This document shows positions 21,080 through 35,558 of a stretch of 64,000 nucleotides of DNA, one piece after another. This DNA is from Pseudoalteromonas sp. UG3-2 (lineage in GTDB: Bacteria; Pseudomonadota; Gammaproteobacteria; Enterobacterales; Alteromonadaceae). Each line of letters opens with the position of its first letter. Positions within the stretch are counted from its first letter, which is position 1. The DNA is taken from contig NZ_JAWLJU010000001.1 in assembly GCF_037120705.1 (NCBI RefSeq), positions 558,001 to 622,000 on the forward strand, written 5' to 3'. The notes under the pieces were generated by a model. The model worked only from the letters and a program-made list of their open reading frames with translations, had not been told where the DNA came from and ran no database searches. The position numbers and the translations under genes are program-made.

Positions 21080-21109
21080 AGATCAGCCAAGTTAGTAAAA
21101 AACTGATCT
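21080..21109 (+). repeat. Single copy of the 19-bp GATC motif with an inverted half-site
   Basis: 21091-21109 reads GTTAGTAAAAAACTGATCT, matching the motif arrayed at 29850-30066. It is preceded at 21080-21086 by AGATCAG, the inverse of its own end, giving a flanking AGATCAG...CTGATCT palindrome. It lies 13 bases upstream of the PfpI gene start, where it could bind a regulator. Confidence 0.6.
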
Positions 21110-21122
21110 GTAAGGCAAACTG

Positions 21123-21701
21123 ATGGAAGTTGGCATTTTCATTTATGACGGCGCGGAAAGTTTAGATTTTTGCGGACCATTCGAAGTATTTAATACGGTA
21201 AAACGGTTTATCGATACTCCCATCAATATCAGTATTGTTGCTCCCAGCCATATTCCAATTACTTCTCGTGGGGGAATGAGTGTAAACCCCCATTACAGTA
21301 TTTATTCCCACCCCAAGTTCGACTTACTCATTGTCGTAGGTGGATTACATCAAAACATTTGTCGTGACCACAACGTCTTAAATTGGTTAGCAGAAACCGC
21401 TAACCACACCTCGCAGTGCGCCGCTGTTTGTACTGGCGTGTTTCTGTATGCCGAAGCAGGCTTAATTGATGGTAAACGCGTCACGACTCATTGGCAGAAC
21501 TTAGATCAACTTAAAGAACTGTATCCGACACTCGAAGTAGTGGAAAATGCACGCTATGTTATGGATCAGAATTTTACTAGCTCTGCGGCAGTGTCGGCAG
21601 GTATTGATATGAGCCTCGCTTTAGTAGAAAAAAAGTTTGGCCAAGCCATTGCGATGGAAACCGCAAATTACATGGACTACGACTGGTCAGCAAACGAGTA
21701 A
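21123..21701 (+). CDS. DJ-1/PfpI family protein, isocyanide hydratase-like
   Basis: A 192-residue DJ-1/PfpI protein. The nucleophile C103 is in the elbow AAVCTGVFLYAEAGL and D15 sits in SLDFCGP, an arrangement that matches isocyanide hydratases (Asp near the N terminus, Cys-Thr at the elbow) better than proteases or glyoxalases. The AraC-type helix-turn-helix found in regulator relatives is absent. A copy of the dispersed 19-bp GATC motif lies immediately upstream of the start. The substrate cannot be confirmed from sequence. Confidence 0.82.
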   Translation: MEVGIFIYDGAESLDFCGPFEVFNTVKRFIDTPINISIVAPSHIPITSRGGMSVNPHYSIYSHPKFDLLIVVGGLHQNICRDHNVLNWLAETANHTSQCAAVCTGVFLYAEAGLIDGKRVTTHWQNLDQLKELYPTLEVVENARYVMDQNFTSSAAVSAGIDMSLALVEKKFGQAIAMETANYMDYDWSANE

Positions 21702-27487: not shown

Positions 27488-27793
27488 GTGCCTGCGCTCG
27501 GTAACGCCAATCCGTTATTAAGTACTTATCAAGTACAAGTCGTTATTCGTTTTTTCATTGCAATAGTAGGCGGCTATTTTTTCACCGCCCTATGCGCCTC
27601 ATTACTGGCATTATTATTACCAACCACGCACCTCGACGCGCTGCTATTCGCCTTATCAAGCAGCCTTATTTTTTATACCTTGGTGTTTATTGGGGTCTTT
27701 AGTTGCCGCTCATTTCGCCGCCTTTGTGTTGTTAGCACAATGACATTAACCCTGCTCTATGCCTTGCTGATATCACTTGGAGGGACGCTGTGA
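27488..27793 (+). CDS. DUF3649 family membrane protein (iron-uptake accessory)
   Basis: A 101-residue protein with three hydrophobic helices (about residues 18-43, 49-72 and 80-99), GTG start and GAGG upstream. Size, helices and position first in a trio with PepSY and DUF3325 proteins match the DUF3649 family, which accompanies TonB-dependent siderophore receptors in many gammaproteobacteria. A probable Fur box lies upstream. It overlaps the PepSY gene by 4 bases. No receptor gene is adjacent here. Confidence 0.75.
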   Translation: MPALGNANPLLSTYQVQVVIRFFIAIVGGYFFTALCASLLALLLPTTHLDALLFALSSSLIFYTLVFIGVFSCRSFRRLCVVSTMTLTLLYALLISLGGTL

Positions 27794-29376
27794 AAGACTC
27801 TTTTTTCCGCAGCATGAGCTGGTTACACACTTGGGTTGGGTTACTCGTCTGTTGGCTGTTATTGCTTATTTTTTTCGCCGGCACGACCAGCTTCTTTCGT
27901 CATGAGATCAGTTTTTGGGCACAACCAGCGGTTCATGACTTACCCGACTATAACCCAGCTTTACAACGCCAAATCGTCAGCGACAGCATTGCTAAGCTGC
28001 AACAGCAGGCCGCTGACGCCCGTTCATGGCGTATTGAAATGCCCACCGAACGTCGCCCTAGCCTGCTATTAATTACTTCGCAACAACCTGAAGCCGGAGA
28101 ACGTCGTGGTAAACGCGAATTTAATTACTATAATCCTTTGACGCTTGAGCCATTACCTGACTATCGCGAAACCCGCGGCGGTAACTTCTTCTACCGCTTA
28201 CATTTTGACCTGCATTATATGGATGCCATTAGTGCACGCTGGATAGTCTGTTTTGCTAGCTTATTTATGCTGATCGCTTTGGTCTCGGGCGTGGTGATCC
28301 ACAAACGTATTTTTAAAGATTTATTTCAGTTTCGCAGCGGCAAAGGACTCAGGAGCTGGTTAGACGGCCATAATGTGTCTTCGGTTATTGCCCTGCCCTT
28401 TCATATTATGATCACCTACACCGGATTGGTGACGTTGATTTTTATGCTGTTGCCACAGCCACAAAAACAGCACTTTGGCGACCGTCAAGCCGTGCGCGCG
28501 GAGCAATTTCCTTTCTCAGCCAGTATTGAAAAAAGTGGCCAGCCTTTACAGCAGATAGCACTTGGTACCATTCTGGATCATTATTTTACTAACAATAATG
28601 ACCTACCCATTCGCCGCATTAGTATCTCATCGCCTGCGGATGCCAATGCCACAATAAAAATCTATGCTAATGCCGTGCGCCAAGTGCAGGACGATCCACC
28701 TGGTTGGATGTATCAGGCTGCCAGTGGTGAGTTGCTGGCCACTCAGCATACCGAGTTGTCAGCAGCAGAAAAACTCTATGGTGGCATGATTGCACTGCAC
28801 ACTGGTCGCTTTGCTGAGCCTATGCTACGTTGGCTCTATTTCCTTTGTGGTTTGGCCGGCTGCGCCATGATTGCCACGGGCGCGGTGATGTGGGCAAAAC
28901 GACTGCGACAAAAATCTAAAGCGACCGGTAAGGGTCCCTTTGGCTTGCGCTTAGTGGAAGCATTGAATCTCGCCACCATCATGGGGCTTCCAGCTGCCAC
29001 TGCGGCTTTTTTTCACGCTAACCGTCTGCTGCCTATTGACCTTATAGGCCGAGCCGACAAAGAGGTTTTGGCCTTCTTTATAACTTGGGGCGCATTCACA
29101 TTGGCTGCATTCGTCAGTGCCTCGCGGCGCTCTTGGTGGTTTGCTGCACTGAGCAATGCCCTATTATGGGGCACATTACCATTGGTGAATATGCTTGTAA
29201 CATCAGACAACACCCTAATTTATCTCTACCAGCAACAGTGGCTTCTGTTTGCTGTTGATGCAATTGCCATTATCACAGCAATTGGTTTTCTAATTCAGGC
29301 CAATAAACTGAAGTTAACAGCAAGCTCCTCTGCAGCTAAAGGTAAGCGCATTAAACGCGAGGTAGTCGATTCATGA
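27790..29376 (+). CDS. PepSY-associated transmembrane protein, putative ferric-siderophore reductase
   Basis: A 528-residue inner-membrane protein of the PepSY-TM family. It has an N-terminal SWLHTWVGLLVCWLLLLIFFAGTTSFFRHE helix, a periplasmic PepSY-type domain with the FFYRLHFDLHYM histidines, helices at about residues 147-170, 197-220, 345-370 and several more at the C terminus. The paired His residues on helices fit haem binding, as proposed for FoxB/FegB-like siderophore reductases. GTG start overlapping the DUF3649 stop. Likely role: reductive iron release from siderophores at the inner membrane, under Fur control. Confidence 0.85.
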   Translation: MKDSFFRSMSWLHTWVGLLVCWLLLLIFFAGTTSFFRHEISFWAQPAVHDLPDYNPALQRQIVSDSIAKLQQQAADARSWRIEMPTERRPSLLLITSQQPEAGERRGKREFNYYNPLTLEPLPDYRETRGGNFFYRLHFDLHYMDAISARWIVCFASLFMLIALVSGVVIHKRIFKDLFQFRSGKGLRSWLDGHNVSSVIALPFHIMITYTGLVTLIFMLLPQPQKQHFGDRQAVRAEQFPFSASIEKSGQPLQQIALGTILDHYFTNNNDLPIRRISISSPADANATIKIYANAVRQVQDDPPGWMYQAASGELLATQHTELSAAEKLYGGMIALHTGRFAEPMLRWLYFLCGLAGCAMIATGAVMWAKRLRQKSKATGKGPFGLRLVEALNLATIMGLPAATAAFFHANRLLPIDLIGRADKEVLAFFITWGAFTLAAFVSASRRSWWFAALSNALLWGTLPLVNMLVTSDNTLIYLYQQQWLLFAVDAIAIITAIGFLIQANKLKLTASSSAAKGKRIKREVVDS

Positions 29377-29693
29377 TGTTGGTTGCTTTAATACTGTGTT
29401 TAATGGCCTTCGTCGGCTTTGCGCTCAGCAAACCAAACCACTATAAAGAGGTCATGGGCTGTCGGCCTTCAACACAACTTTGCCGCCAGCTCAATCTGCT
29501 GAGCTGGGTTCTGCTCAGTATCAGTTTTGTGCTAGCAATTAAAGAGAGTGGGGCATATGGTAGCCTTGAGATACTAGGTTATATGACTTTCTCGGTGTTG
29601 TTGTTGGTGTCGCTATTGGCGTTGCGGCCAACCTGGTTGAGATCATTATTTTACCTACTTCCTGCTGCGCTTATTGTCTCCTTACTGATATAG
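29373..29693 (+). CDS. DUF3325 family membrane protein
   Basis: A 106-residue protein with helices at about residues 2-18, 40-58, 64-84 and 88-106; the pattern KPNHYKEVMGCRPSTQLCRQLNLLSWVLLSISF is typical of DUF3325. It overlaps the end of the PepSY gene by 4 bases and completes the three-gene iron-uptake accessory operon. The biochemical function is unknown. It is followed 15 bases later by a strong terminator. Confidence 0.8.
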   Translation: MMLVALILCLMAFVGFALSKPNHYKEVMGCRPSTQLCRQLNLLSWVLLSISFVLAIKESGAYGSLEILGYMTFSVLLLVSLLALRPTWLRSLFYLLPAALIVSLLI

Positions 29694-29707
29694 ATCAGAG
29701 TTTAATC

Positions 29708-29733
29708 AAGGCGCCGTAACTGGCGCCTTTTTT
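29708..29733 (+). terminator. Strong Rho-independent terminator
   Basis: AGGCGCC stem, six-base loop, GGCGCCT and a run of six T. It closes the DUF3649-PepSY-DUF3325 operon. Confidence 0.85.
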
Positions 29734-30066
29734 GGATCATGATTTTACTAGCTTTGGATTGTTAAGCCATTGAAGTAAAATGTTTTTGTCTAAAAATCAC
29801 ACAGTGTTATGGCAATACAACAAGGATTTACTAACTTATTGCCCATTAAGTTAGTAAAAAGCTGATCTATTAGTTCGCACGCCTATCATTAGTTAGTAAA
29901 ATGCTGATCTCTACTAGCAAACACATTAACTAGGTTAGTAAAAAACGGATCTGTGTAATGCCATTTCCGCTTTTGTTGGTATAAGTCTGATCCATATTAT
30001 CAGCCCCGATAACACAACTAAGTAAAATACTGATCCATAAACATTGAGTTAGTAATTTGATGATCT
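29734..30066 (+). repeat. Array of a 19-bp GATC-containing motif, about 42-bp period
   Basis: Six same-orientation copies start at 29850, 29892, 29934, 29975, 30018 and 30048, at spacings 42, 42, 41, 43 and 30. A reversed copy lies at 29734-29752. The consensus is GTTAGTAAAAWNCTGATCT; AGTA is nearly constant and GATC is invariant. The spacers are not alike. The rest of the gene-free stretch (29694-30321) has no coding frame of note. See the findings for interpretation. Confidence 0.75.
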
Positions 30067-30321: not shown

Positions 30322-31971
30322 TTATTCTTGTTGCCACTCAAGCTGCATGTCCCACACATATCGATGCTCAGGCTCAAGGGGCTGCTGAGAGTCGTCTACT
30401 TGTTGCAGCACATTTTGTGCCTCAACTAGGGTAGCATCGCGACCAAACAAGTAACTTTGCTCAGCAACTATGGTTTTATAGGCTTTATTCAAAGCCAACG
30501 CTCGTTCTTTAGAAGGGGTAATTAACTCATACAAATTAGTGGCGGATTTGACCTTTTGTTTATTCACTGTTCCGTCTTGATTGAACCAACGCATTAGCAT
30601 TTCTTGGTTTTGTCTAAACTCATCGCCACCGCCGACACGCATCATATAGGTTAAGAACTCACCTTGCGTTTCGCCCTTATTTGGCACGTCAGTCATGGCT
30701 TTTAAATCAATGTAGCCCCAACCAAGCTTACCTTCTACTTTTCTGGCAAAAGAAAATGTTTGATCATAGGTTGAGCCAATGGTCTTATGACAACCATTGC
30801 AAAAAGCGAGCTCCTGTTCATGCTGTGGTCGTAACTGCCCCTCTTTATCCTCTATATAGCCATTTAGAGTCCAACCAAAGTTATTATTAATTCCTTGGTC
30901 ACCTAAATAAAGCGTTTGTGGATAATTTTCAAAGGCTTTTTCTTTTGCCTCGCGGTAATAGGCTGCGCCCAACGATTGCTTTGACTTGAAGTTGTGCTTT
31001 TTCATATAACGCACTTCTTTCATTCTTGGTGCATTAAAGATATTCCCTTGCTCATCTACTCCAATGTACCTTACGGTATGTAAAAACTCTGTATTCTCAG
31101 GGTACAGTTCGTGAGCCAGCTTGATGCTGTTGGCATCGCCGACATAGTATTGTCTGGCTTTAATTTTAGTGATGCGACTAAGCACACCATCGCCATTCAA
31201 GTCCGTACCAATTTGCGATTCTGAAATTTCTGGAGTAGTTATGGTGTCAAGCCCCTTTACAGCCATCTCCACCAAACTGAGGTTGGCAAGGTAGACGTCT
31301 TTGCTGAAGCTGCCAGAGGTTTCCCTAAAGGCATCGGCAAGGCGGATCATGACATCACCGGTGGAGCCATTGGTTGGCCAAAAGGTACTAGGAAAGGGCT
31401 TGTAATTAAACGCCACCCAACCACTGCCGTCTTTAGCAAAGCCTTGCTCATCGAACGCCTGCTCAGGATAAGCTAAATTTTCAATCGGGGTAATCTCGCC
31501 CTTCCAGCTTGGATCGGCTTTTAGCTTTTCAATCAGGGGAGCGTAGTTGTCTTGATTGACCCAGTTAGTAATATCTTGATCTGAGATATTGGCAATAAGC
31601 TCAGAGCGATCTTTGAATAGGTTTTTCCAATGGTTCTTAAAACCTAAATCAGAGAATTCATAGGCACCTTGTAAGTTGCCATCACGCATCATATTAGGTC
31701 GCTTTTTATCATCATAAGACTGGTGACAAGCGTAGCATGGGTTATTCACGCCATCGGTTTTGGTGTAGCACTGCGGCGGGATCACCGATTCAGGGTTATA
31801 TACTTCATCATGCGCCATAAACGCCGTAGCAGGAATATCATCTCCCTCAGAGTAGGGCGCAGTGACAGGGGAGCTCAGCACCTTGGTGCCGTTTGCGGTA
31901 ACAACTGGCGGCTCCTGGCACCCTGTCATGAAGACAGCTAAAGAGACAGCAATAAAGCTAACGTATTTCAC
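30322..31971 (-). CDS. Di-haem c-type cytochrome lipoprotein, function unknown
   Basis: A 549-residue lipoprotein (lipobox Cys18, MTGC; Gln at +2 suggests the outer membrane). Two CxxCH haem-attachment motifs are far apart: CYACH at 79-83 and CNGCH at 391-395, so haem is attached in the periplasm. The remainder is unlike MauG or Dhc peroxidases that could be recalled, although the spacing of two c-haem motifs several hundred residues apart is reminiscent of di-haem enzymes. It lies just downstream of the PhoX-like gene on the same strand, with a terminator between. Substrate and partner are unknown; functional linkage to the PhoX-like protein is inference from adjacency. Confidence 0.8.
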   Translation of the reverse strand: MKYVSFIAVSLAVFMTGCQEPPVVTANGTKVLSSPVTAPYSEGDDIPATAFMAHDEVYNPESVIPPQCYTKTDGVNNPCYACHQSYDDKKRPNMMRDGNLQGAYEFSDLGFKNHWKNLFKDRSELIANISDQDITNWVNQDNYAPLIEKLKADPSWKGEITPIENLAYPEQAFDEQGFAKDGSGWVAFNYKPFPSTFWPTNGSTGDVMIRLADAFRETSGSFSKDVYLANLSLVEMAVKGLDTITTPEISESQIGTDLNGDGVLSRITKIKARQYYVGDANSIKLAHELYPENTEFLHTVRYIGVDEQGNIFNAPRMKEVRYMKKHNFKSKQSLGAAYYREAKEKAFENYPQTLYLGDQGINNNFGWTLNGYIEDKEGQLRPQHEQELAFCNGCHKTIGSTYDQTFSFARKVEGKLGWGYIDLKAMTDVPNKGETQGEFLTYMMRVGGGDEFRQNQEMLMRWFNQDGTVNKQKVKSATNLYELITPSKERALALNKAYKTIVAEQSYLFGRDATLVEAQNVLQQVDDSQQPLEPEHRYVWDMQLEWQQE

Positions 31972-32047: not shown

Positions 32048-33976
32048 TTACTGTGCTTTAGGGTCATAAAGCCAAAGCGTATTGTTTTCTTGGAAGCCAT
32101 CTTCACCGATGATGATACGGCCGTCTTCCATTACGATGACGTTATCAGGCTGAGAAAGCTGGTTTACATCGCAGCGTTCTGCCCCTGTTAATGACGAACG
32201 GTAAGTGCCACCCATTACCACAGGTTCAATGCGCGTTAGGTTGTAACTGTTATCAATATGCGCACGGTATACACCACCACAGTCTTTCACTCGTGCAGAT
32301 AGCTGAATATCACCCTTACCATTAGTCATGGTTTTATCGATATCCGCAATGCCGATATACATATAAGCTTTATCTACGACTTCGCCAGCCACCACATCTT
32401 GACCAGTCACCGCTTCTAACACGCGATTATGATTGATGCTGATCCCTTCAAGCTTACGCCATTCGGCCGTAGCACCCATTTGACGAGCGGCTTGACGAGA
32501 CTCTAGGAAGATTGCACGATTGTCCATCGGCTGACCCGCTGTCACCAAACCACCGCCATTTTCTACGCTAGGATAGTTAGCAGCGCCCTCGGCCCATGCT
32601 TTAACATCCGCCACTGATAAGTAGCTGGTTTGGCCATCAACGTAGTCTGAGGTATCAATGTTGTCGTATTGTGCAACCCAAGTTTCTATTTCAGCATTGC
32701 TTCCGGAGCCCAGTTCTACCCATGAAACATCAAACCCGGTTACCGCTGGATCGGATAGTCCTGCGTCTTGAGTAAGTTTGGCTGCATACAAAGTACCAGA
32801 ACTTAGGTCTTCAGGCTGATCAGCAACAAACTTAAATAGCACGCCACCGGTATCATCTTGTGATGAGTAAACAGTGCGACGGTCAGGCATAACTACTGAG
32901 TTTTCATGCTCATAACGACCAATAGTGAAATGCTTAACGACATCCGGAGTATCTGATGTTGGGTTTTGAATTTCAGCAATATAGCCATAGCGATATGGAT
33001 TAGGGAAGTCAGGGGCAGTTAGCGCTTCCATGGTATCGTTACCAGTTTCGCTAGGGTCGTTCCAGGCTGGGTCTTGAGTTGAATCAACCGATGACCAAAC
33101 GATCCACTCTTCTGAAGTCAGTGGCGTGCCCCAAGGAGATACTGAGCCAAAACAGTTTGCTGCCGTACCTTTAACGCCATCGAAGTCCACCATCATGGCT
33201 TCTTCGATAGACCATTGACCACTGGTCGCTTTGCTCATTTTTAAGCGACTTACGCCACCAGGGTAGGCCTCCCAGTTAGTAAACAAGTAGCCCGTATCGG
33301 CATCAACAGGAATGAAACCATTAAAATCAGGGTTGTCATTTTTAATGATTTCTTCACCGGTAGAAATGCTGTAATGAACGCCTAAACCGCCCGCTAAACC
33401 TTTGTCGCCAAGCTCATCAAAGGTATCGCCAGTTTGGCCAAGAATTTGATATTGGCCAATCGCCGACACCACGGTTTGCTGTTCCATGGTTGATGCCGGC
33501 ACTGGAGCGCTGGCAATGGCCGCTGGTAGGTTATTAAAGTTAACCCCAGTTAGAACACCTACAGTACCGGTATTAAATGGCTTGCTGTTAAAGCTGTCGG
33601 TTTCCGTATTGCTGTCATTAGGGTGCTGAACGTTAAAAAATAAATCCCCACCTTCTGATAAGAACAAGCCAGTTACTTCTGCACCTGCAGGTACCGTGGC
33701 TATGCGCACTAGGCCAGGTACGCTGTAACTGCCATCACGACCATCTACGCCATCTTGACCATCTTGACCGTCTTGGCCGTCAGTGCCATCTTGACCATCC
33801 GCACCGTTTTGGCCGTTACTACCATTACTGCCGTCAACGCCATCTTGGCCAGCACTGCCTTGTTCACCTTGAGGACCAGCAGGACCAACAGGCCCTTGCT
33901 CGCCATCATCGCCATCACACGCTGTGAGAGACATTGCAACCGCCGCTGCAATCAGAGAATATGCTACACGCTTCAT
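32048..33976 (-). CDS. PhoX-like (DUF839) lipoprotein with collagen-like stalk
   Basis: A 642-residue lipoprotein, lipobox Cys20 (LTAC). Residues 25-82 are about 19 uninterrupted G-x-y triplets rich in Asp, Gln and Asn, a collagen-like spacer. The rest matches the PhoX/DUF839 beta-propeller family: GLFLSEGGDLFFNVQHPND, ANCFGSVSPWGTPLTSEEW (the Cys that binds iron in PhoX is kept), GRYEHENSVVMPDRRTVYSSQDDTGGVLFKFV and the C-terminal RCDVNQLSQPDNVIVMEDGRIIIGEDG. PhoX enzymes are Ca/Fe-dependent periplasmic phosphatases; activity here is predicted, not shown. Asp directly after the lipidated Cys would signal inner-membrane retention by the E. coli Lol rule. No clear Pho box was found upstream. 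Confidence 0.82.
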   Translation of the reverse strand: MKRVAYSLIAAAVAMSLTACDGDDGEQGPVGPAGPQGEQGSAGQDGVDGSNGSNGQNGADGQDGTDGQDGQDGQDGVDGRDGSYSVPGLVRIATVPAGAEVTGLFLSEGGDLFFNVQHPNDSNTETDSFNSKPFNTGTVGVLTGVNFNNLPAAIASAPVPASTMEQQTVVSAIGQYQILGQTGDTFDELGDKGLAGGLGVHYSISTGEEIIKNDNPDFNGFIPVDADTGYLFTNWEAYPGGVSRLKMSKATSGQWSIEEAMMVDFDGVKGTAANCFGSVSPWGTPLTSEEWIVWSSVDSTQDPAWNDPSETGNDTMEALTAPDFPNPYRYGYIAEIQNPTSDTPDVVKHFTIGRYEHENSVVMPDRRTVYSSQDDTGGVLFKFVADQPEDLSSGTLYAAKLTQDAGLSDPAVTGFDVSWVELGSGSNAEIETWVAQYDNIDTSDYVDGQTSYLSVADVKAWAEGAANYPSVENGGGLVTAGQPMDNRAIFLESRQAARQMGATAEWRKLEGISINHNRVLEAVTGQDVVAGEVVDKAYMYIGIADIDKTMTNGKGDIQLSARVKDCGGVYRAHIDNSYNLTRIEPVVMGGTYRSSLTGAERCDVNQLSQPDNVIVMEDGRIIIGEDGFQENNTLWLYDPKAQ

Positions 33977-34841: not shown

Positions 34842-35402
34842 ATGCAAAAGGAACAGAACAAAAAAATACTAACTCGAGGGCTGGGTGCTGAAAGTGGCTT
34901 ACTTGCTTTCTACATTGAACATGCGCCCCCTTTACCTCCTTACCAGGATTGTCAGCAAGTGCTGCCTCTGGCACTTGGAGAAGTGGCTCATATTGGTGCT
35001 CAGTGTGGCAATGGCTGGCGTAAAATTTTTAATGTTTTTGCCAAAACCTTGGCCGCTGGCGCTTTTTTAGATCATCAAATTACTAACTATGAGCGCTGGC
35101 AAGACTACCGCGACAACCAATTACTGCAATCCAACTCACAAGAAGCGCTGCTGTTCAGTCCACCAGACTTAGCTGCAAACCGCTATCAATGGCACATTAT
35201 CGCAGGTCGCACCTATGCAAAAAAGCTACTCAGAGATCACGTTTTTACTAACAACTTGGTTTGGTTAGACAGCGAATTCGCGGTTGACTATGAGCGCCGC
35301 CTAATCGTTTCACCGTTTCTTGACTATCGGCAATTAAGTAACATTAAAATCAATAAGTTAGTTAATATAATTAAACAGGCTTCCGGATCGAACAATGATT
35401 AA
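34842..35402 (+). CDS. Hypothetical protein, 186 residues, carrying two copies of the GATC motif
   Basis: A 186-residue soluble protein with no signal peptide or membrane helix and no family recognised with confidence. The N-terminal third has GLGAESGLLAFYIEHAPPLPPY and the striking HIGAQCGNGWRKIFNVFAKTLA, composed like a conserved core rather than random sequence; Trp and aromatic content are normal for a real protein. Two exact or near-exact inverse copies of the 19-bp GATC motif lie inside it, at 35069-35087 and 35234-35252, in the same reading frame (encoding DHQITN and DHVFTN). The ATG follows AGAGGTCGCA. The first half is the more convincing coding region. Confidence 0.6.
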   Translation: MQKEQNKKILTRGLGAESGLLAFYIEHAPPLPPYQDCQQVLPLALGEVAHIGAQCGNGWRKIFNVFAKTLAAGAFLDHQITNYERWQDYRDNQLLQSNSQEALLFSPPDLAANRYQWHIIAGRTYAKKLLRDHVFTNNLVWLDSEFAVDYERRLIVSPFLDYRQLSNIKINKLVNIIKQASGSNND

Positions 35403-35558
35403 AAGAAAAAATAATTAACGACTGAGATCAGCTTTATACCTAGTAATATACTGATCTCTACTTGTTAGTTGCAGACTGTAAAGATTAAGAGATCAGGATT
35501 TTACTAGCTAACCTGTAAGATTTTTCTTTTATTTCAATAGGATCATATTTTTACTAAG
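35069..35558 (-). repeat. Second cluster of the 19-bp GATC motif, mostly inverted
   Basis: Copies on the minus strand at 35069-35087, 35234-35252, 35425-35443, 35490-35508 and 35540-35558, plus one on the plus strand at 35439-35457 overlapping its inverse by five bases. The copy at 35069 is identical over all 19 bases to the copy at 30048-30066. The first two lie within the coding frame 34842-35402; the rest are in the gap before the methyltransferase. Confidence 0.7.

What the first reader, a model, noticed from the sequence alone, without database searches (positions are those of the whole stretch)
29734..30066. Phased array of a 19-bp GATC-containing motif with a 42-bp period
Six same-strand copies of GTTAGTAAAAWNCTGATCT lie at starts 29850, 29892, 29934, 29975, 30018 and 30048 (spacings 42, 42, 41, 43, 30), and a reversed copy at 29734. 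A 42-bp spacing is four helical turns, so bound proteins would face the same side of the DNA. The spacers are dissimilar, the repeat is degenerate (AGTA and GATC constant), and the array sits between two transcription units. This looks like a cooperative binding array for an unknown protein, perhaps methylation-sensitive because every copy has a Dam site, as in iteron-type replication or chromosome-organising sites. Seen directly; the role is inference.
Basis: partly seen in the sequence, partly recalled or inferred. Interest (0 to 1): 0.85.

Follow-up and report, generated by a model that had tools for sequence, protein, structure and literature searches.

The report
Second-chromosome replication-control binding array
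A row of evenly spaced DNA sites, of the same kind as those in the replication origin of this marine bacterium's second chromosome and at one fixed spot on its main chromosome, probably helps to ration the protein that starts replication so that the second chromosome is copied once and at the right time.

Summary
The array is real and larger than described: three more reversed copies (two weak) belong to it, and the motif (S TTAGTAAAA WWN TGATC Y) has clusters elsewhere. The window lies on the 813-kb chromid of a Pseudoalteromonas. The motif fills the chromid origin between parA and repA (74 of 74 loci), occurs in 60 of 60 genus genomes and in 3 of 114 other genomes of the family. Plasmids with 46-49% identical RepA mostly carry diverged versions upstream of repA, so it follows RepA, whose predicted fold best matches RctB and RepE. 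I read the window array as a satellite RepA-binding (iteron) array, 76 kb from the origin in the early-copied arm, probably limiting re-initiation by titration or handcuffing, like the RctB satellite locus and datA. The unexpected part is an array on the main chromosome, downstream of fba in 60 of 60 genomes, inverted and strictly phased: a candidate for the timing site that Xie et al. (2021) proposed but did not find.

The parts
29641..30066 (.). Whole satellite array: reversed copies, then forward copies (116 bp from the strong reversed copy 29735 to the first forward one)
   Evidence: the first four gaps (52, 42, 116, 42) are identical in NC201 and P. piscicida chromids
29641..29658 (-). 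motif copy, 2 mismatches to TTAGTAAAANNNTGATC; inside 3' end of DUF3325 gene
29693..29709 (-). weak motif copy, 3 mismatches
29818..29834 (-). weak copy without GATC, 3 mismatches, 83 bp from the previous one
29850..29868 (+). motif copy 1, exact
29892..29910 (+). motif copy 2, exact
29934..29952 (+). motif copy 3
29975..29993 (+). motif copy 4 (GGTA instead of AGTA)
30018..30036 (+). motif copy 5
30048..30066 (+). motif copy 6
28576..28593 (-). outlying motif copy inside the PepSY_TM gene, 1,065 bp from copy 29641; an exact copy lies at the same distance in NC201 and P. piscicida
31564..31581 (+). outlying motif copy inside the 549-aa gene; NC201 and P. piscicida have a copy at a comparable but not identical distance (1,796 against 1,924 bp)
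35070..35558 (.). second satellite cluster: 35070-, 35235-, 35426- (weak), 35440+, 35491-, 35541-; the first two lie inside the DUF6942 gene
21091..21581 (.). third satellite pair: 21091+ (exact) and 21564-
27790..29376 (+). flanking gene, PepSY_TM (PF03929)
29373..29693 (+). flanking gene, DUF3325 (PF11804), convergent with the next
30322..31971 (-). flanking gene, 549 aa, no Pfam match; two CxxCH motifs seen in the sequence

Best explanation
The window array is a satellite iteron array of the Pseudoalteromonas chromid: a set of helically phased, Dam-site-containing binding sites for RepA, the chromid's replication initiator, 76 kb from the origin in the early-replicated arm. Proposed working: RepA bound to origin iterons starts replication; the fork then duplicates the satellite arrays within the first 15-85 kb, and the doubled sites soak up RepA or pair with origin iterons (handcuffing) and hold off a second start. 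A third kind of array, on the main chromosome downstream of fba, would act in trans and link chromid initiation to passage of the main chromosome's fork, for example by releasing RepA when it turns hemimethylated. Shown by sequence: site identity, origin location, phasing, conservation, position. Supported by homology and co-occurrence: RepA as the binder. Inferred: fork direction (from GC skew), negative role of satellites, timing role of the fba array, methylation dependence.
Confidence: 0.8

Rival explanations
1. The motif is the missing Pseudoalteromonas Ter site, bound by the Tus homologue encoded 2.7 kb from ori2, and the arrays are replication fork traps.
For: A Tus homologue lies beside ori2 (Ter family, 1.6e-78). 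TTAGT is shared with one end of E. coli Ter (recalled). dif2 is reported 4 to 27 kb from ori2 in most of these chromids (PMC7858055, passages).
Against: Both orientations occur within tens of bases in the origin and inside the fba array (57 of 60 are '- .. +'), which would block forks in both directions, also in mid-replichore of the main chromosome. 8 of 114 other-genus genomes of the family have Tus and none of these 8 has the exact motif. Related plasmids carry the motif type beside repA; none of the four named plasmids is among the 40 listed Tus hits (3672 more records not listed, so absence of Tus there is not shown).
Confidence: 0.04
2. The motif is a centromere-like or chromosome-organising site (parS2/ParB2 or another architectural protein).
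For: parA2 lies next to the origin array; clusters near an origin are typical of parS (recalled); phasing suits co-assembly.
Against: Plasmids with quite different partition genes (PRTRC-type ParB in NZ_CP032092 and NZ_CP023400, ParA/ParB in NC_015708) keep the motif type upstream of repA, so it tracks RepA rather than ParB. A main-chromosome array would be odd for a chromid centromere.
Confidence: 0.07
3. The arrays outside the origin bind RepA but are inert relics of duplicated origins or only weak sinks without regulatory effect.
For: Mutating three of the most prominent extra RctB sites in V. cholerae had minimal effects (PMC11711613, section 6 read). The window array is not beside the same gene in all relatives.
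Against: Spacing and motif are kept against NC201 while the sequence between drifts to 51%; same-side clustering, 169 of 170; fba array kept in 60 of 60.
Confidence: 0.12
4. The arrays regulate transcription of neighbouring genes.
For: They are largely intergenic; RepA may well repress its own gene, since one copy ends about 55-70 bp upstream of the repA start.
Against: The window array lies between convergent genes. The porin gene downstream of the fba array was found in only 26 of 60 regions (short regions, tblastn 1e-3) while the array is in all.
Confidence: 0.03

Closest known systems
Vibrio cholerae RctB satellite locus on Chr2 and E. coli datA (initiator titration loci)
   Same: Clusters of initiator sites outside the origin, tens of kb away on the same replicon; the V. 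[quoted passage not shown]
   Different: Other initiator; more sites, several clusters, nearly all on one side of the origin; phased inverted architecture; inhibition not shown here.
Vibrio crtS site on Chr1
   Same: One conserved place on the main chromosome tied to the chromid initiator; the remaining distance to ter1 suits termination synchrony.
   Different: crtS shares no similarity with the RctB iteron or 39-mer motifs (PMC11711613, section 6), whereas the fba array is made of the chromid's own iterons; initiator is RepA; triggering untested.
Iterons of RepE/Pi/Rep plasmids and plasmid inc loci (P1 incA, F incC; recalled)
   Same: Short repeats beside rep, DnaA boxes, helical spacing, RepE-like predicted fold of the initiator.
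   Different: Here copies are also spread over about 100 kb of a chromid and on a second replicon.

Membership tests
Iteron (Rep-binding) arrays of iteron replicons | Short repeats in the origin next to the rep gene | tested here: met
   At least 4 copies within 700 bp upstream of repA in 74 of 74 loci
Iteron (Rep-binding) arrays of iteron replicons | Initiator with RepE/Pi-type fold | tested here: met
Iteron (Rep-binding) arrays of iteron replicons | Repeats in helical register | tested here: met
   fba arrays R=0.92 at 10.5 bp over 49 distinct spacing vectors; for the 25 unique distances R=0.88, reached in 0 of 20,000 random draws; origin R=0.67, window-type arrays R=0.70
Iteron (Rep-binding) arrays of iteron replicons | Rep protein binds the repeat | not testable with these tools
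   No binding data; indirect support from co-occurrence with RepA
crtS | Site at one place on the primary chromosome, conserved in the clade | tested here: met
   Array downstream of fba in 60 of 60 genomes
crtS | RctB is the initiator it acts on | tested here: not met
   The chromid initiator is RepA; no RctB chain among its PDB sequence matches, only the predicted fold is alike. So: works like crtS at most, not a member
crtS | Distance to ter1 matches the time to copy the chromid | tested here: inconclusive
   Enough time in 13 of 14 genomes (G002 only if bidirectional), but the correlation vanishes when replichore length is controlled (partial r 0.13)
crtS | Its replication triggers chromid initiation | not testable with these tools
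   Needs deletion and relocation with marker-frequency analysis
datA-like titration locus | Cluster of initiator sites outside the origin, replicated soon after it | tested here: met
   169 of 170 listed sites on one side of repA, 163 within 105 kb; GC skew in G000 fits a leftward fork through that arm; replication order inferred, not measured
datA-like titration locus | Extra copies lower initiation | not testable with these tools
   none
Tus/Ter fork trap | Sites polar and oriented to stop forks in one direction | tested here: not met
   Both orientations inside single arrays; 57 of 60 fba arrays are '- .. +'
parS/ParB centromere | Bound by the replicon's ParB | not testable with these tools
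   Indirectly disfavoured by plasmids with other partition systems

The most novel reading that the evidence does not exclude
Pseudoalteromonas has evolved, independently of Vibrio and with a different initiator, a two-chromosome replication checkpoint: a conserved inverted, helically phased array of the chromid's own RepA iterons on the main chromosome downstream of fba senses passage of the fork and times chromid initiation, while satellite arrays such as the one in the window close the window for re-initiation.
Probability: 0.5. Interest if true: 0.88.

Novelty: new variant of a known kind. Interest (0 to 1): 0.78.

Why it matters
Termination synchrony of the two chromosomes is shown in Pseudoalteromonas, and Xie et al. 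2021 (PMC7858055, passages) proposed a main-chromosome trigger site but found nothing like Vibrio crtS. A 2026 study (PMC13342612, passages) still lists finding such timers in further systems as an open task. Here is a precise, deletable candidate in 60 of 60 genomes, together with the iteron that lets its partner sites be mapped. If it works, a cross-chromosome checkpoint has arisen at least twice, and the Pseudoalteromonas version, made of the initiator's own iterons, would be simpler to understand than crtS.

Tried and rejected
Ter/Tus: the E. coli TerB core (recalled) gives 28 matches with up to 3 mismatches in 441 kb of the chromid against 23.6 in letter-shuffled sequence, so no Ter set was found that way; the motif itself fails the polarity expectation. 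RNA readings: Rfam gives only a sub-threshold MicX match around the array (19.5 bits, gathering 75) and no tRNA was found in the window. dif by an E. coli-type consensus (recalled): 2 of 18 genomes matched; in both (G012, G056) the match lies within about 15 kb of the point opposite dnaA, so ter1 was set at half the chromosome for all. Timing test: raw correlation of chromid length with fba-to-ter1 distance r=0.73 (n=13; G002 left out as probably bidirectional), but given replichore length only 0.13 (0.56, p 0.057, without G017); so not used as proof. G017 would have too little time if unidirectional; its GC skew does not settle its mode. Of 18 genomes with dnaA placed 14 were used; G001 (no chromid), G020 and G048 (more contigs) and G059 (chromid length not obtained) were left out. 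A letter-by-letter comparison of the window array with G014 was out of register, since one gap there is a base shorter, and gave motif 47 of 94 and between 68 of 176; only the NC201 comparison is used. Repeat search around plasmid repA genes: arrays upstream in L221, L222, L224, L225 and L227; none in L229; L228 has no upstream sequence on its contig; nothing comparable downstream. Searches of solved structures by sequence, single and profile, gave only chance matches. Paper searches for a published Pseudoalteromonas iteron or crtS-like site; none seen in the listings and passages, but the library lacks most subscription journals. One search (a V. cholerae search) returned nothing. Passages of PMC12053903 and PMC8496264 were also seen and held no iteron or binding site for this chromid. 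SeqA was not looked for.

Full report
OBSERVATION. With up to three mismatches the 18-base pattern has 17 matches in the window, 0.73 expected. Copy 29975 has GGTA, so only GATC is constant. Further reversed copies at 29641, 29693 and 29818 (the last two weak) make the array 'minus copies, then plus copies', with 116 bp from 29735 to the first plus copy. It lies between two convergent genes (PepSY_TM/DUF3325 to the left, a 549-aa protein without a Pfam match to the right).

WHERE IT IS. The window is C1:558001-622000 of a two-contig genome: C1 812,891 bases, C2 3,349,174. A whole-genome search shows that good copies are not scattered: of 28 places with at most two mismatches to the 18-base pattern, 23 lie on C1 between 579.1 and 664.4 kb, four form one cluster on C2 at 2,981.5-2,981.65 kb, and one lies elsewhere on C2. 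A weight-matrix scan of the fetched stretches shows C1 clusters near 579, 587-590, 593, 649.6 and 664 kb with a single copy at 644 kb, and extends the C2 cluster to 2,981,186-2,981,648. Of the 74 related repA loci 73 are titled Pseudoalteromonas and one is an unnamed MAG, so C1 is taken as the chromid and C2 as the main chromosome.

THE CHROMID ORIGIN. The cluster at 663.9-664.3 kb fills the gap between divergent parA and a 408-aa gene, with DnaA boxes TTATACACA and TTATTCACA and 15 GATCs where 1.9 are expected from the window's average. The 408-aa protein is RepA: Xie et al. 2021 showed that repA plus ori2 is the minimal chromid replicon (PMC7858055, section 8 read in full, passages elsewhere). 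At least four motif copies stand within 700 bp upstream of repA in 74 of 74 loci, at similar positions. A logo from 884 distinct clustered sites gives a[GC]TTAGTAAAA[AT][AT]NTGATC[TC]; the final base, which was not part of the search pattern, is T or C in all (0% A and 0% G as rounded).

PHASING. In the fba arrays same-strand neighbours are 20-21, 30-32, 40-43, 51-52, 61-63, 82-84, 93-95, 104, 114-116 or 126 bp apart and never in between: R=0.92 at 10.5 bp over 164 spacings from 49 distinct spacing vectors, and for the 25 unique distances R=0.88, reached in 0 of 20,000 random draws. Inverted gaps are phased too (mostly 44, 96, 103-107, 114-117, 127-128; R about 0.8). Origin and window-type arrays are phased less strictly (R 0.67 and 0.70).

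CONSERVATION OF THE WINDOW ARRAY. In the chromids of Pseudoalteromonas sp. NC201 (NZ_CP022523.1, 501939-502114) and P. piscicida 2515 (NZ_CP074588.1, 309224-309399), 81-85 kb from repA, the first four gaps (52, 42, 116, 42) are identical; the next differ by at most one base from the window's (41 against 42, 41 against 41) and the window has two more copies. Against NC201 the motifs are 81% identical (76 of 94) and the DNA between 51% (90 of 176). The 549-aa neighbour has homologues in 29 of 60 genomes; in 17 of these 29 at least four copies cluster within 1.5 kb of it, in 12 they do not.

POSITION ON THE CHROMID. In 16 complete or nearly complete genomes 169 of 170 listed exact chromid sites lie on the parA side of repA, 163 within 105 kb, 126 more than 0.8 kb upstream of repA and so outside the origin (transcribed; some G047 sites were not listed). 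In G000 the GC skew is negative in 23 of 26 sampled stretches (440,891 of 812,891 bases), which fits one fork leaving the origin towards that side. So the satellites would be copied within about the first tenth of chromid replication. This is inferred from skew, not measured.

THE MAIN-CHROMOSOME ARRAY. C2:2981186-2981648 lies between fba (class II aldolase) and a porin gene. An array stands downstream of fba in 60 of 60 genus genomes: 59 within 1.5 kb and G016 about 2 kb away. It has 6.65 copies on average (up to three mismatches), and 57 of 60 have the pure minus-then-plus order. The porin neighbour was found in only 26 of 60 regions, so the array hardly serves that gene. G001, a single-contig assembly without RepA, keeps it too; it may be a chromosome-only deposit. 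A few single exact copies lie elsewhere on main chromosomes.

TIMING. In 14 genomes with both replicons in single contigs the fba array sits at 0.30-0.45 of the replichore, with 1.00-1.37 Mb left to ter1 (set opposite dnaA). A unidirectional chromid would need 0.66-1.29 Mb in 12 of them, leaving 65-388 kb; the 1.6-Mb chromid of G002, at the size reported for bidirectional ones, would leave 219 kb if bidirectional; G017 (1.32 Mb) would be 206 kb short if unidirectional, and its mode is unclear. The raw correlation is r=0.73 (n=13) but 0.13 once replichore length is allowed for. So the place is compatible with a timer and proves nothing. In Vibrionaceae the comparable test supported crtS as an end-control site (PMC5854411, passages).

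HOW IT LIKELY WORKS. Iteron systems limit initiation by titration and handcuffing; V. cholerae has a RctB satellite locus 40 kb from ori2 that inhibits ori2 and is likened to datA (PMC6090056, passages), and its iterons bind RctB only when methylated on both strands (PMC11711613, passages). By analogy the window array is a RepA sink doubled soon after initiation. The fba array may hand RepA over when the fork passes; the hemimethylation step is my inference. Dam is present in 11 of 11 genomes tested. Three of the most prominent extra RctB sites in V. cholerae had minimal effect when mutated (PMC11711613, section 6 read), which is a fair warning.

NOVELTY. RepA, ori2, tus near ori2 and termination synchrony are published (PMC7858055). 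I saw no published iteron, satellite array or main-chromosome site for this genus; Xie et al. state that a search of the main chromosome revealed nothing like crtS. This is a new variant of a known kind: initiator-site arrays governing a secondary chromosome.

Noticed in passing
L024:2368-2382 (C1:664368-664382): A conserved element (TGTTGT[TC]AT..) about 30-45 bp upstream of repA in 67 of 74 origin loci; it matches the recalled E. coli Ter core at 12 of 15 positions (such matches are no commoner than chance) and may simply be the repA promoter.
   Followed up: partly
RepA, L024:2395-3621: The predicted fold of the Pseudoalteromonas chromid initiator is closest to Vibrio RctB domains 2-3, although the two are described as different initiators.
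   Followed up: partly
G001, contig C1 (3,631,285 bases): The only one of 60 genus genomes without RepA; a single contig that still has the fba array. Chromid loss or a chromosome-only deposit.
   Followed up: no
L220:1906-2426: Plasmid NZ_CP027525 has its own diverged iterons upstream of repA and also three exact chromid-type copies downstream: possible cross-talk with the chromid.
   Followed up: no
G046 C1:1908095, G049 C1:2023158, G008 C1:1364967; also G047 C1:685110, G002 C1:1557372: Lone exact copies on the main chromosome away from fba; the first three have identical letters, perhaps one conserved gene.
   Followed up: no
G018, G002, G016, G428, G023 repA: repA matches with an in-frame stop or split in two; could be assembly errors. 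Described only.
   Followed up: no
window 32048-33976: A PhoX-type protein with an N-terminal collagen-like repeat stretch.
   Followed up: no
L026:11402-11461: Three near-identical 21-bp tandem copies of the motif in the main-chromosome array, a two-turn spacing.
   Followed up: no
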